Source: Desulfobacteraceae bacterium
GTDB lineage: Bacteria; Desulfobacterota; Desulfobacteria; Desulfobacterales; Desulfosalsimonadaceae
Length of the DNA stretch: 64,000 bases
Assembly (NCBI GenBank): GCA_014237465.1
Contig: JABZFM010000015.1
Location: forward strand, 1-64,000
Direction: 5' to 3'
The translations under genes were made by a program, and so were the position numbers. Below the pieces are notes generated by a model, which ran no database searches, was not told the origin of the DNA, and worked only from the letters and a program-made list of their open reading frames with translations. This document shows, piece after piece, positions 47,970 to 61,024 of the stretch; within the stretch, counting starts at the first letter, position 1, and every line of letters begins with the position of its first letter.

Positions 47970-49076
47970 TCAGGCCACGGCTGATGCAGACTTAAAACCT
48001 TCAAGCCCAACATAGAACAATTCAGGTTCAAGGCATAGAAGACGATGGATGCGCGCCCAATAATTAGCACTGGCCACCGCGATGGCCAAGTCGAGGATAC
48101 CGACATCATCATAGTTCATCCGCCTCAGATCATCGATCATATCCTTTGTTGTGCGAAAGGCATAACGTGTTCCCACAAATGCGAAGGCCTCGACCGGATT
48201 CTCCGGACACTTATGAAATCCTTTGGCGTCCTCAACGCCTGCCGGTAACGCATCTTCCACTGTGCGGTGGATTTTGGCAAGCGTTTCACGACTGAGGCTG
48301 GTGTGGATGACTTGCTCCTCAAGGATAAACCGGAAGACTTCTATCAGCCTGGGGCGCGACTTAACAGACGCGAACGCATCCCCTGGTTTCCTTCCCAGGG
48401 CTTGTTCAAAGAGTGGCGTAATATTTTCAAGTGTTTCTTCATAGGAGGAATTGAATTCTCGATTCTGAAGATCCATCTTTGACATGATTAAGCTTGCAAT
48501 ACGGACAGTGAAGCGTCTTAAAAATTCAAATCGACGAAGGGGTTCAGGAAGAGCCTCGGGAGAAACATTCAGAAGGTCCGCCATCCGGTTGATAAAATGG
48601 AATGCGCCGATCGCTAACGTGTAGTCGATGGCGCCATCTCCAACGATCTCCCGGAGCGGATCAAGATCAGACGGGACAAGTCGCGCAGGCTGCTCAAAGT
48701 TTTTCCTGACCAGTGCAATAAGCTCATGCTCAAGCGGAGTTTCATCTGCTGCTGAACCATCAATTAACTTAGCGACTCTGGCGGCTTTTCCTCCTGCAGC
48801 CTGCAGGAATGCCTCGTGGCCGTCGGTTCAATAATGGCATTCATTAAAACGTGAGACCGCTGCCGCCACCATCTCCCGGTTATAACGCGGCTCGTCTCCC
48901 ATCCACATGGACATCTCCCATATCTGAATCATCATTTTCATTGAAGCGGGTTTGAGGCTGAATATTTGCACAATCTTTGGGATCATGCCATGCCCTTCAA
49001 CCTGTGCGAGTGACTTGTAAACCTCGGCGGTCTCGCCGGTTGCTTTGCCCGGGGGGATCGTGTTGATAAACGCCAT
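47970..49076 (-). CDS. AhpD-like (carboxymuconolactone decarboxylase fold) probable selenoprotein, UGA at codon 83
   Basis: Read as one 368-residue frame with a single internal TGA (48828-48830). MAFINTIPPGKATGETAEVY starts the N-terminal part, the AhpD motif region reads RFNECHY-U-TDGHEAFLQAAG, and the frame then stays open through the second half to the stop at 47970. In peroxidase-related AhpD proteins the motif is C-x-x-C-x-x-x-H. Here the second Cys is replaced by UGA, giving C80-H-Y-U83-T-D-G-H87. A hairpin of the bacterial SECIS type follows. AAAGGAG stands before the ATG. Likely a thiol/selenol peroxidase. Alternatively a nonsense mutation, but the exact position of the codon argues against that. 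Confidence 0.82.
48792..48830 (-). promoter_or_regulatory. SECIS-like hairpin after the in-frame UGA
   Basis: In the mRNA, 19 bases after UGA, TCCTGCA (48808-48802) pairs perfectly with TGCAGGA (48798-48792) over the loop GGC. A short loop beginning with G, 16-37 bases from UGA, matches the rules known for bacterial SECIS elements. The arm and loop resemble the GC-AGGUCU-GC tip of the E. coli formate dehydrogenase SECIS. Confidence 0.65.
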
Positions 49077-49115
49077 CAGAATTCTCCTTTACTGGTTTTT
49101 TAGGGAGCCGTAATA

Positions 49116-49295
49116 TTGATGAATTCATAAAAAGTACCGGTTTTGATAAAAAATGGCTAAGTTAAAAGTTCCACCAATCCCATAAAATTTGGCAAGGCGT
49201 AGCGTTTTTTTAGGCACGAAGGCATACATAGAGTATGTCGAGTGTCTGAAAAAAGGCTGCAACGCAGTAAATGGGACTTTTAACGACGCCATCAA
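49116..49295. mobile_element. MITE-like element of the TTGATGG family
   Basis: About 180 bases bounded by TTGATGAATTCATAAAAAGT and ACTTTTAACGACGCCATCAA, inverted. The stop of the iron-sulfur gene (TGA, 49292-49294) lies in its end. Interior with AGGCACGAAGG, no coding sequence. Confidence 0.6.
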
Positions 49296-50614
49296 AGTTC
49301 CAAAATATAGCCTTTTCCCTGAACTTTAACTCCGGTGGCCATGGTTTTAAGAAATGTAGACCGTAGTGCATCGCTCATAAGGGCCTTTTTTACCAAAAAA
49401 AGTTTGAAGAATCCGCCCACGATGCCGCGCATAACCGTCTGGGTCATGCTCCCGGGATTGTCAAAAATCTGGTTCTGAAGGGTTCCCCTGTCTAGGGACT
49501 GGAGGATGACCCGGTGAAACGTGGTCTCCGGATGAATGACATTTTTTTCCCGCTTTACCAGTTTGAGCGCACCTGTTTTACAATCCAAAGCACATACACC
49601 GCAGCCCACACAGATGGACTGGTCTACCAGAGGCTTAAATTTTTTCTTCTTTTTGCCCTTCGCATCAACAGAGGGATTTTTTATGGGAATCATCTCAATG
49701 GCATTAATGTGGCAAGCCTTTGAACACTTTTTGCACCCGATGCATTTTTCTTCATCAATCTCGGGAATCAGGGTGGATGTGACCAGGGTCGCCGGCAGTC
49801 CGTGGGTGGTGATGCCGTTTAAAATCTGGCAGCAGCATCCGCAGCAGTGGCAGATGAACATGAGTCTTTTTTGAACATTGTCCGCGGAAAATACCAGCCC
49901 CAGTTCCTTTGATCGGGCGAATATTTCCAGCATTTCCGATTTTGAGACCTCTTTTGCCATTTTATGCCGGATCAGGTATTCGGCGCCGATGCCAAAAGAA
50001 GTGCATGTGCTCAGCGGCACAAAGCACTCTTTACCTTCAGCATGCAATTTCTTATGGCGGCATGAACAATTGCCCACGGAAAATTTTTCAGCCTCTTCGA
50101 TAATGCTCGTTGCCCGTTCGTAATCCAGAATTTCAACATGGTCGCCCACAGCTTCTTCATGGGGGAGCGCCCGGGCAATGGAGGTCTGTTCCCCGCCGTT
50201 AAAATTTGCCCTGAAGGGAGCCCCATCATGCATGTAATTGTTAAACAGGTTTCCCCATTTTTTCATATTCAGGCCGTCGCCGGTCCTCATCATGGTAAAT
50301 TCAAACACGCCGACAAACAGCGGGGACAGCATATACTTGTATTCGCCTCTCAACCAGATATCCATGACCAGACCCTTTGCACTCAGGCCTTCTAAAATAT
50401 GCTGCAATTTTGTCTTATCAATTTTAGTGATTTTGCTGATACGGTCCAGGCCGGAGGAAACATATGGCATCCTCACGATCACCTCGGCCTCCTCAACCGA
50501 ATAAAATTCTTTTAAAATTTCATAGAAGGCGTCATTCATGGGCGCCCTCACATGCTGGTTATCGATTTTTTTTCCCAGTCTTTTATAAATATCTTTGGTA
50601 GCGAGGTGTCCCGT
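49292..50614 (-). CDS. Winged-helix-like 4Fe-4S protein with a CxCCGCCC cluster
   Basis: 440 residues if begun at ACG (50614), which follows AAGGAG by 6 bases and restores the N-terminus KDIYKRLGKKIDNQ expected from the paralogue at 59.1 kb; GTG at 50551 or ATG at 50539 would cut it short. The N-terminal part resembles a helix-turn-helix, the middle has CSCRHKK and the dense motif FICHCCGCCCQIL, and two ferredoxin-type clusters follow (CIGCKKCSKACH, CVGCGVCALDC). It likely transfers electrons or senses redox in a pathway controlled by the GntR gene 17 bases upstream. The reaction is unknown. Confidence 0.75.
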   Translation of the reverse strand, partial: TGHLATKDIYKRLGKKIDNQHVRAPMNDAFYEILKEFYSVEEAEVIVRMPYVSSGLDRISKITKIDKTKLQHILEGLSAKGLVMDIWLRGEYKYMLSPLFVGVFEFTMMRTGDGLNMKKWGNLFNNYMHDGAPFRANFNGGEQTSIARALPHEEAVGDHVEILDYERATSIIEEAEKFSVGNCSCRHKKLHAEGKECFVPLSTCTSFGIGAEYLIRHKMAKEVSKSEMLEIFARSKELGLVFSADNVQKRLMFICHCCGCCCQILNGITTHGLPATLVTSTLIPEIDEEKCIGCKKCSKACHINAIEMIPIKNPSVDAKGKKKKKFKPLVDQSICVGCGVCALDCKTGALKLVKREKNVIHPETTFHRVILQSLDRGTLQNQIFDNPGSMTQTVMRGIVGGFFKLFLVKKALMSDALRSTFLKTMATGVKVQGKGYILEL

Positions 50615-59064: not shown

Positions 59065-60147
59065 ATGAGCGATGAAATTTATCACAAGCTGGCAAAGCTG
59101 CTTGACACCCTGCCAAACGGATTTCCCGCCACACCCAACGGTGTTGAAATCAAATTGCTGAAAAAAATTTTTACCCCTGAAGAGGCGGACCTTTTTATGG
59201 ATTTACGGCTTACCGCTGAAACACCGAAACAGATCGCGGAACGGACCGGAAGACCTTTAAAAGGCTTAGATGAACAACTTGTCTCCATGTGGAAAAGAGG
59301 TGAATTGTTTGGTGTGGACTTAAATGGATTTAAAATGTTTAAGATGATTCCCTGGGTCCTCGGTATCTATGAATTTCAACTAAAACGCATGGACCGTGAA
59401 TTTGCGGAACTGTGTGAAGAATATGCACCTTTTATGGCCAAACAATTTTTTACCGAAAAGCCCCAGTTTATGCAGACCATTCCCATTGAGCAGGAAATAT
59501 CTGAAAAACATGAAACCCTGTCCTATGAAAAAGTCTCCACGATCATTGAAAATGGGCTGTCTTTTGCGGTTGCGGATTGCATCTGCAAAAAGGAAAAAAG
59601 CCTTTTAGATGAGCGTTGTGACAAGCCCATGGAAGTATGCCTTGCTATTGCGCCGATTCCCGGGGCATTTGATAATTTTGCCCATTGGGGCAGACCCATA
59701 TCAAAACAGGAAGCCTATGATGTGCTGAAAACATCAGAGGAAGCCGGCCTTGTTCATTTAACCCAGAACATTGAAAGCGAGCATTTCTTTATCTGTAATT
59801 GCTGCGGATGCTGCTGCGGAATCCTTCGAGGCATGAATGAGTATGGCTTCACAGATGCCATTAACTCAAATTTTTGCGCTAAAATCGACCCGGACACCTG
59901 TATCTCATGTGGTGTATGTGAGGAAGAACGATGCCAGGTCAAAGCCATTGAAGAGGTGGATGAAGTTTTTCGTGTAATCGAGGAGCGGTGCATCGGGTGC
60001 GGGCTTTGTATCTCCACATGCCCGTCGGAATCTATCCAACTGGTTAGAAAAGATGCCCAAGACATCACAAAACCGCCAAAGAATGAAATGGACTGGTTGA
60101 AAGTAAGAGGGGGGAACCGCGGTGTGGATTTCAGCGACTATATTTAA
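59065..60147 (+). CDS. Paralogous winged-helix-like 4Fe-4S protein with CxCCGCCC cluster
   Basis: 360 residues. The N-terminal part has a helix-turn-helix-like segment (TAETPKQIAERTGRPLKGLDEQL), residues 244-251 form CNCCGCCC, and two ferredoxin clusters follow (CISCGVCEEERC, CIGCGLCISTCP). It is a paralogue of the protein at 49.3 kb, with the same order of parts. AAGGACAA lies before the ATG. Whether the Cys cluster binds an extra iron-sulfur centre or a metal is unknown. Confidence 0.8.
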   Translation: MSDEIYHKLAKLLDTLPNGFPATPNGVEIKLLKKIFTPEEADLFMDLRLTAETPKQIAERTGRPLKGLDEQLVSMWKRGELFGVDLNGFKMFKMIPWVLGIYEFQLKRMDREFAELCEEYAPFMAKQFFTEKPQFMQTIPIEQEISEKHETLSYEKVSTIIENGLSFAVADCICKKEKSLLDERCDKPMEVCLAIAPIPGAFDNFAHWGRPISKQEAYDVLKTSEEAGLVHLTQNIESEHFFICNCCGCCCGILRGMNEYGFTDAINSNFCAKIDPDTCISCGVCEEERCQVKAIEEVDEVFRVIEERCIGCGLCISTCPSESIQLVRKDAQDITKPPKNEMDWLKVRGGNRGVDFSDYI

Positions 60148-60262
60148 GCTGAAATAGTTCAGGCTTGATCTGACAATCCTATTGCAAAAAAGAGGATTAC
60201 AGGTTTTGATATAGGTGGCTAAACCTTAAAAAATATCAAAACACAAAAGGAGGAATTAGACA

Positions 60263-61024
60263 ATGGAGCAATCAGTTCGAATTATGCCGTGCCTTGACAT
60301 GCAGAACGGACGCGTCGTCAAAGGCGTTCATTTCGTGGATATTCGGGATGCCGGTGATCCGGTCGAATGTGCAAGGGCGTATTGCGACGCCGGTGCAGAT
60401 GAACTGGCCCTTTTGGATATCACGGCCACGGTGGAAGGCAGAGCCACCATGCTTGATATTGTTACGCGTGTCGCAGAGGTCACCACGGTTCCATTGACCG
60501 TTGGCGGCGGAATTTCCGACGTGAAATCGGCCGAAGCAGTATTAAACGCAGGCGCAAACAAAGTCTCGACCAGCAGTGCCGCCTTCCGGAATCCCGAACT
60601 GATCCCGGAAATGGTGAATGTGCTGGGCGCTGATAACGTGACAGTGGCCATTGATGTGGACCGGAACAAAGCCCTCCCCTCAGGCTATGAAGTTTATATT
60701 GACGGCGGACGAACGGCCACCGGTGCTGATGCAGTGGAATGGGCCAAACGTGTGGATGGTTTCGGGGTGCCGGTCATTCTTCCTACAAGTAAGGCGGGCG
60801 ACGGTGCGCAAACCGGATTTGATCTGCCGGTAATCCATGCTATCAAGGAAGCGGTTTCAGCCGAGGTTGTGGCGTCCGGCGGCGCGGGGAAACTGGAACA
60901 CTTCTATGGGGCCGCACAGGCTGGGGCGACCATCCTGCTTGCCGCGTCCGTGTTCCATTTCGGGCTCATCGGCATCGATGACTTAAAGGACTACCTCCGG
61001 GGCCGGGGGATGAATATCCGCTAA
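60263..61024 (+). CDS. hisF: HisF-like cyclase protein
   Basis: 253 residues, the length of HisF. The beta-alpha barrel has MPCLDMQNGRVVKG with the first catalytic Asp, VTVAIDVDRN with the second, GGRTATGADAVEW and VASGGAGKLEHF. In HisF the loop after strand 6 usually reads LTSMDRDG, here LPTSKAGDG, so substrate binding may differ. It would close the imidazole ring in histidine synthesis, but no other his gene is near. AAAGGAGG lies before the ATG. Confidence 0.85.
   Translation: MEQSVRIMPCLDMQNGRVVKGVHFVDIRDAGDPVECARAYCDAGADELALLDITATVEGRATMLDIVTRVAEVTTVPLTVGGGISDVKSAEAVLNAGANKVSTSSAAFRNPELIPEMVNVLGADNVTVAIDVDRNKALPSGYEVYIDGGRTATGADAVEWAKRVDGFGVPVILPTSKAGDGAQTGFDLPVIHAIKEAVSAEVVASGGAGKLEHFYGAAQAGATILLAASVFHFGLIGIDDLKDYLRGRGMNIR

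What the first reader, a model, noticed from the sequence alone, without database searches (positions are those of the whole stretch)
47970..49076. Probable new-type selenoprotein: long AhpD-like protein with a CxxU motif and SECIS hairpin
A single in-frame TGA lies exactly where AhpD-family proteins carry the second Cys of C-x-x-C-x-x-x-H (here CHY-TGA-TDGH). The frame is open on both sides to a total of 368 residues. A hairpin with arms TCCTGCA/TGCAGGA and loop GGC begins 19 bases after the TGA, in the range known for bacterial SECIS elements. AhpD-like selenoproteins are known in principle; this double-length member with a second, Cys-free half may be a new architecture.
Basis: partly seen in the sequence, partly recalled or inferred. 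Interest (0 to 1): 0.9.

Follow-up and report, generated by a model that had tools for sequence, protein, structure and literature searches.

The report
Sestrin-shaped bacterial selenoprotein with two AhpD-like halves
This bacterial gene reads an internal UGA stop codon as selenocysteine to build a two-part antioxidant-type protein whose first half carries the selenium and whose second half has lost its active site, a layout so far best known from the sestrins of animals.

Summary
Of 12 full-length matches (window included), 11 carry UGA at the same codon; the twelfth, a paralogue, has Ser. Among ten of the UGA genes (47-64% identical; one near-copy dropped), only 5 of 80 conserved degenerate-residue columns keep one codon, and four of these are the adjacent codons of the hairpin: selection on RNA. 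The own genome has tRNA-Sec, SelA and SelB. CxxU AhpD-like selenoproteins are known since 2005, so the motif is not new. The layout is: a Sec-bearing AhpD/CMD domain first, then a degenerate CMD domain whose redox helix pair is replaced, in the model, by an acidic loop (net -3 to -6 in 11 of 11). NF041238, a known double-length selenoprotein family, has the Sec domain second. The AlphaFold model (pLDDT 93) matches human Sestrin2 best over full length; a survey of sestrin ancestry gives loss of a helix at this place as what separates sestrins from bacterial analogues. Homology to sestrins is not shown by sequence. Most likely function: Sec-dependent hydroperoxide or thiol oxidoreductase with a binding or scaffolding second domain.

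The parts
47973..49076 (-). Coding region of the 368-residue selenoprotein (TGA at codon 83 read as Sec; terminal TGA at 47970-47972)
   Evidence: Translation; full-length homologues; purifying selection after the UGA against the 89% identical relative (dN 0.08, dS 0.26)
48828..48830 (-). In-frame UGA = selenocysteine 83
   Evidence: TGA in 11 of 11 genes of the alignment, 11 of 12 full-length matches; Cys in the double-domain and Actinobacterial relatives read
48792..48808 (-). SECIS hairpin, 7-bp stem, loop GGC, loop 26 nt after the UGA
   Evidence: CTG CAG GCT GCA kept in all 11 genes; the window hairpin fits the published bSECIS model
49084..49090 (-). Shine-Dalgarno AAAGGAG, 7 bases before ATG
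   Evidence: Sequence
48552..49076 (-). N-terminal AhpD/CMD domain, residues 1-175, with Glu68, Cys80, Tyr82, Sec83, His87 (all invariant in 11)
   Evidence: PF02627 31.5 bits, cut-off 23; invariant columns; the same set of residues is named for YP_296737.1
47973..48551 (-). Linker and second, degenerate CMD-like domain, residues 176-368
   Evidence: Second-half profile of 18 proteins against first-half profile of 26: prob 94.8, E 5.5e-8; against the same 18: 48.9; with the Sec clade and Ser paralogue only: 2.7-5.3; reversed controls 0.1-0.4; model helices
48198..48248 (-). Acidic loop (residues 277-293) where a CMD domain has its redox helix pair; conserved GFHxxP
   Evidence: Secondary structure of the model; net charge of residues 272-296 is -3 to -6 in 11 of 11

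Best explanation
It is a real selenoprotein gene. Shown by comparison: UGA 83 is kept as UGA and the protein is conserved beyond it, and the hairpin just after it is under selection as nucleic acid, as a SECIS should be. Inferred from established biology: SelB with Sec-tRNA reads the hairpin and inserts Sec. The first half is an AhpD/CMD redox domain; Sec83, helped by the Glu68/His87 proton relay, attacks an organic hydroperoxide (or a disulfide), Cys80 resolves the selenenic acid as a Cys-Sec bond, and a dithiol partner (lipoyl or thioredoxin type) restores it. The second half is a CMD-fold domain that lost its redox helix pair and carries an acidic conserved loop instead; it most likely packs on the first half as a partner subunit would, and binds a ligand or partner.
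For: UGA in 11 of 11 aligned genes. Single-codon columns: 5 of 80, at codons +2, +8, +9, +10, +11 after the UGA; 3 of 52 among four- and six-fold residues, all in the hairpin, even in genes with third-position GC of 0.87 (G413) and 0.91 (G824). None of the six double-domain Cys relatives has these four codons (only one, G848, has the same four residues and it writes CTA CAG GCT GCC); the Ser paralogue has all four, as a fossil. Own genome: tRNA-Sec, SelB, SelA (the same cut-offs are passed in 5, 2 and 1 of 14 control genomes). SelA over cut-off in 10 of 10 other carriers, tRNA-Sec in 8 of 10. CMD domain at E up to 0.1 in 26 of 26 members of A5. Model pLDDT 93.4, pTM 0.92. Second half conserved as strongly as the first: 42 of 185 against 45 of 170 positions invariant.
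Against: No experiment shows Sec. In G006 and G007 the stem is weaker (-7.1 and -6.2 kcal/mol by my stem-only measure, missing the published -7.5 limit; the other nine reach -9.6 or lower), and of six genes folded as 60-mers, G006, G007 and G413 prefer other pairings. One full-length relative (G852:C18) has Ser and Gln in place of Sec and His. No conserved neighbour gene points to a substrate or partner. With the Sec clade and Ser paralogue alone the second half is barely alignable to a CMD domain (prob 2.7-5.3); the link runs through the Cys relatives and the model.
Confidence: 0.85

Rival explanations
1. The TGA is an ordinary nonsense mutation or sequencing error in a Cys protein.
For: A single TGA in one draft assembly could be that; decayed copies exist (own genome C34 remnant, G154).
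Against: UGA at the same codon in 11 genes, ten of them 47-64% identical, and the conserved silent codons after it.
Confidence: 0.01
2. The organism reads TGA as another amino acid everywhere (altered code).
For: The frame is open.
Against: The gene itself ends at TGA; tRNA-Sec, SelB and SelA are present; the other ten carriers have SelA.
Confidence: 0.01
3. A real selenoprotein, but not a peroxidase: a thiol-disulfide or dehalogenase-type enzyme, or a redox sensor whose Sec domain only switches the second domain.
For: CMD-fold relatives include the debrominase Bmp8; the second domain is as conserved as the first; no conserved neighbour such as a peroxiredoxin gene was found.
Against: Glu, Tyr and His of the alkylhydroperoxidase relay are invariant; the best-scoring solved chains are AhpD or peroxidase-related proteins.
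Confidence: 0.35
4. Two separate proteins: an 82-residue product and a product restarted after the UGA.
For: An internal ATG ORF of 204 residues exists.
Against: Conservation runs across the UGA, the codons just after it are conserved as DNA, and the first half of the modelled fold needs residues on both sides.
Confidence: 0.02

Closest known systems
AhpD-like CxxU selenoproteins (TIGR01926 in the table of PMC13188914; COG2128 and PF02627 families in PMC1088965, PMC2398784; passages seen)
   Same: AhpD core, Cys-x-x-Sec-x-x-x-His, UGA plus hairpin; the first half scores 65.7 (window) to 86.9 bits (G849) against TIGR01926
   Different: The single-domain Sec relatives read here are mostly about 190 residues, most with another hairpin (CGCCAT...ATGGCG) that starts about 13 nt after the UGA; the window protein is below the TIGR01926 cut-off of 81.8
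NF041238, AhpD-related CFYUT selenoprotein ('hypothetical protein 1' of the Sargasso Sea in PMC13188914)
   Same: About 360 residues with one Sec-bearing CMD half (L148, L150 over cut-off); its other half is CMD-like by profile (prob 86.6, E 4.5e-6 against Cys first halves)
   Different: Opposite order: the Sec domain is the second half; the tree places it apart; the window scores 52.6 against a cut-off of 175
Double-CMD Cys proteins of the same phylum (L084, L085, L086, G848, G850, G852:C16)
   Same: Two CMD halves, active site in the first; next to the Sec clade in the tree
   Different: Cys at the Sec site in six of six (the first Cys is Ser in G850); the second half still has the helix stretch with a remnant such as CDYFxxNC
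Sestrins (human Sestrin2: 5t0n, 5dj4, 5cuf)
   Same: Best full-length structural match (Foldseek E 3.0e-5 to 1.1e-4, TM 0.56-0.58); active first domain, second domain without the catalytic residues and with an acidic stretch in place of a redox helix
   Different: 11% identity, rmsd about 15 A over the whole chain; no sequence match to a sestrin chain or to PF04636; no DDYDY motif; Sec-Cys pair instead of a single Cys; the helix pair rather than one helix is gone
R. eutropha YP_296737.1 (2prr) and D. radiodurans AhpD (6k40)
   Same: Fold and active-site residues of the first half
   Different: Single domain, Cys-x-x-Cys

Membership tests
Bacterial selenoprotein genes | In-frame UGA conserved in homologues, with Cys or Sec at the site | tested here: met
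   UGA in 11 of 12 full-length matches; Cys in the more distant relatives read; the one exception has Ser
Bacterial selenoprotein genes | Sec machinery in the genome | tested here: met
   tRNA-Sec, SelB, SelA over cut-off; SelD not searched
Bacterial selenoprotein genes | Sec present in the protein | not testable with these tools
   Needs 75Se or mass spectrometry
[quoted passage not shown]
   Loop GGC, 7 bp, 26 nt
bSECIS model of PMC13188914, Fig 2 legend | Free energy at most -7.5 kcal/mol | tested here: met
   Window: -10.2 for a 30-mer, -9.6 stem alone; stem alone reaches the limit in 9 of 11 genes (not G006, G007)
PF02627 CMD | Gathering score 23 | tested here: met
   31.5 bits
TIGR01926 peroxidase-related enzyme | Curated cut-off 81.8 | tested here: not met
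   Window 65.7; of seven long-Sec members scanned, three pass (G007, G849, G824), four do not (window, G006, G741, G413)
NF041238 AhpD_rel_CFYUT | Curated cut-off 175, whole model | tested here: not met
   52.6 bits, positions 151-329 of 357 only
Sestrins | Sequence family PF04636 | tested here: not met
   No match for the window at E up to 5; no sestrin chain among 19 matches at E up to 10
Sestrins | Two AhpD-like domains, active one first, second with helix replaced by an acidic hinge | tested here: met
   On a predicted model only: helices, Foldseek ranks 1-4; charge of the loop. A helix pair, not one helix, is missing
Sestrins | DDYDY motif and GATOR2 binding | tested here: not met
   Motif absent from the loop in 11 of 11; binding not testable

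The most novel reading that the evidence does not exclude
A bacterial family with the sestrin plan, in selenium form: an N-terminal Sec hydroperoxidase domain fused to a CMD-fold domain that lost its redox helix pair, put an acidic conserved loop there, and took on a binding or sensing role. It would be a closer prokaryotic counterpart of sestrins than those named in the 2024 survey (of four named there, two have the Cys-free domain first, and none was said to lack the second-domain helix), either as kin or as a parallel solution.
Probability: 0.35. Interest if true: 0.8.

Novelty: new variant of a known kind. Interest (0 to 1): 0.62.

Why it matters
It adds a well-supported clade of selenoproteins without an NCBIfam family of its own, which reads as two ORFs when the UGA is taken as a stop. 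[quoted passage not shown] In the model this family has such a loss. A selenium enzyme with a strictly conserved pseudo-domain also offers a clean system to ask what such pseudo-domains do.

Tried and rejected
Hairpin by folding energy alone: not significant. First structure model from three sequences: pLDDT 37, not used. My first guess that TRYA (residues 303-306) stands for the lost CxxC was dropped after profile alignment and the second model placed the gap at about residues 277-293. Homology of the second half to the Actinobacterial double-length Cys proteins: hhalign covers only residues 3-198, so not claimed. Conserved gene neighbourhood: one protein cluster (kinase-like by eye) in four of 11 loci at scattered distances, no other cluster shared by two loci at E 1e-8 (flanks from 0.5 to about 7 kb). 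Nonsense mutation, altered code and split product were considered and rejected (see rivals). Rows left out of the 11-gene alignment: the Ser paralogue G852:C18 (full length, told separately), the 46-codon remnant in G000:C34, the decayed G154 copy (second half only, TAG and frame change), single-domain hits, and the partial hits G194 and G430:C7, which I did not examine. G006 was dropped from the codon test as a near-copy. One search covered the same 148 genomes as and added nothing. The match lists were cut at the weak end.

Full report
What is there. The gene runs on the minus strand from 49076 to 47970. Codon 83 is TGA; the frame is otherwise open for 368 residues and ends at another TGA. 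With TGA as a stop it falls into an 82-residue ORF and a 204-residue ORF. A ribosome site AAAGGAG lies 7 bases before the ATG. After the UGA come 19 bases, then TCCTGCA-GGC-TGCAGGA. By folding alone this is unremarkable.

Is it a selenoprotein? The own genome (5.09 Mb, 70 contigs) has tRNA-Sec at 75.1 bits (cut-off 47), SelB at 369 (242.25) and SelA at 614.6 (267.9); of 14 control genomes 5, 2 and 1 pass these cut-offs. Full-length relatives with UGA: 3 of 11 genomes of the genus, own included; G392 in the order; G741 and G413 in another class of the phylum; and 7 of the 148 genomes of that class, these two included (G741, G413, G849, G851, G852, G824, G846). That makes 11 genes, window included. 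A twelfth full-length match, G852:C18, has Ser at the site. Several carriers are fragmentary drafts (G392 and G851 with 9%, G849 with 7% contamination). The same protein as in G006 is in a named contig, JAJRPH010000010.1, a deltaproteobacterial MAG. SelA is over its cut-off in 10 of 10 of the other carriers, tRNA-Sec in 8 of 10; the misses are G007 (76% complete) and G741 (46.6 bits against 47), and G852 passes only just (48.5).

The decisive test uses silent sites. Leaving out the near-copy G006, ten genes of 47-64% pairwise identity share 80 columns where all have the same residue and that residue has more than one codon. Of 52 columns with four- or six-fold residues only 3 are single-codon, all in the hairpin (simple hypergeometric values 3e-6 and 5e-5, which ignore relatedness). 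Elsewhere in the same genes GCT is 2 of 57 Ala codons in G741 and 2 of 51 in G413, GCA 11 of 57 and 3 of 51. None of the six double-domain Cys relatives has the four codons, though only G848 has the same four residues; the Ser paralogue (TCA at the Sec site, Gln at the His site) has CTG CAG GCT GCA, which looks like a Sec gene that lost Sec and kept a fossil SECIS. Against this, the stem-only energy in G006 and G007 misses the -7.5 limit of the published model, and of six genes folded as 60-mers G006, G007 and G413 fold otherwise. The window hairpin meets that model (loop 3-9 nt, G early in the loop, 16-37 nt, -7.5 kcal/mol; passages of PMC13188914).

What is the protein? The first half is a CMD/AhpD domain (PF02627, 31.5 bits) with Glu68, Cys80, Tyr82, Sec83, His87 invariant in 11 of 11; the corresponding residues are named as proton relay and Cys pair in YP_296737.1 (passages of PMC4674687). 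In the tree of 43 first-domain (for NF041238, Sec-domain) sequences the 11 Sec proteins form one group (93/92; 92% of 200 bootstrap trees), next to the Ser paralogue (a long branch) and then the six double-domain Cys proteins, apart from the short Sec proteins and from NF041238; the root is at the midpoint only. Second-half profiles of 18 proteins (11 Sec, Ser paralogue, 6 Cys) align along the first-half profile of 26 proteins (prob 94.8, E 5.5e-8) and less surely with the first halves of the same 18 (48.9); with the Sec clade and Ser paralogue alone only 2.7-5.3; reversed controls gave 0.1-0.4. In the AlphaFold model (26 sequences, pLDDT 93.4, pTM 0.92) the first half has helices 81-93 (with the Cys-x-x-Sec turn at its start) and 98-106 between helices 64-77 and 114-128; the second half has only a loop with a short helix 281-285 between helices 263-276 and 294-304. 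The stretch 272-296 is net negative in 11 of 11. The second half is as conserved as the first (42 of 185 and 45 of 170 positions invariant), so it is in use.

Comparison. CxxU AhpD-like, CMD-like and NF041238 selenoproteins are in print (passages of PMC1088965, PMC2398784, PMC1794560, PMC13188914). NF041238 members found here (L148 301.8 bits, L150 455.7 bits, cut-off 175) are of the same length, but with the Sec domain second. The window protein passes no NCBIfam cut-off except that of the generic AhpD core domain (TIGR00778, 33.4 against 27.8). Foldseek ranks human Sestrin2 first to fourth over the whole chain (E 3.0e-5 to 1.1e-4, TM 0.56-0.58, 11% identity, rmsd about 15 A, so not one rigid superposition), then single-domain AhpD proteins (2prr and 6k40, TM by target 0.76-0.78). 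In Sestrin2 the first domain is the peroxidase and the second has lost the helix-turn-helix motif. A 2024 survey of sestrin ancestry (PMC11429811, passages) names four bacterial double-AhpD analogues, two of them with the Cys-free domain first, and gives the deletion of a helix in the second domain with an acidic hinge in its place as what sets sestrins apart. The present family has, in the model, a loss at that place (of the helix pair) and an acidic loop, without the DDYDY motif. Sequence searches give no link to sestrins (PF04636 matched 2 of the 26 members of A5 at best E 0.006, but none of the ten scanned). So 'built like a sestrin' is supported by the model; 'is a sestrin' is not. No paper that I found describes a selenoprotein of this layout (searches; listings and passages only, no supplements).

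How it works. Shown: conserved UGA and hairpin; machinery; make-up of the first domain by profile. Predicted: the fold and the second domain's loss. Inferred: Sec83 as attacking residue, Cys80 as resolving residue, a dithiol partner as reductant (AhpD is reduced by a lipoamide-bearing protein; passage of PMC8945050), and a binding role of the second domain. No conserved neighbours narrow the substrate.

Noticed in passing
window 49153-49300: A dispersed repeat of about 148 bases with inverted ends (21 nt, 81% complementary) lies just upstream of the gene; 40 copies were reported in the own genome, itself included (the others 73-87% identical; 40 of 125 candidates were scored), MITE-like.
   Followed up: partly
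G000:C34:56989-57126 (L012): Remnant of a second copy in the own genome: the first 46 codons or so, then stops.
   Followed up: partly
L136:1868-2974 (G852:C18): Full-length paralogue with Ser for Sec and Gln for His that keeps the SECIS codons: a likely Sec-to-Ser change with a fossil SECIS.
   Followed up: partly
G824:C22:60929-61020: The tRNA-Sec gene lies about 490 bases from the long selenoprotein gene (59403-60440); in the other carriers the best tRNA-Sec match is on another contig.
   Followed up: no
L018-L027, L038: Many roughly 190-residue AhpD selenoproteins (CAYU; CEYU in L038) in the same class, most with a different hairpin CGCCAT...ATGGCG about 13 nt after the UGA; one nested member (L030) has Cys.
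   Followed up: partly
G154:C131:1724-2124 (L017, L071): Decayed copy of the second half, with TAG and a frame change.
   Followed up: partly
G741:C190:6219-6581: Another TGA-bearing AhpD gene about 2.6 kb from the long selenoprotein gene.
   Followed up: no
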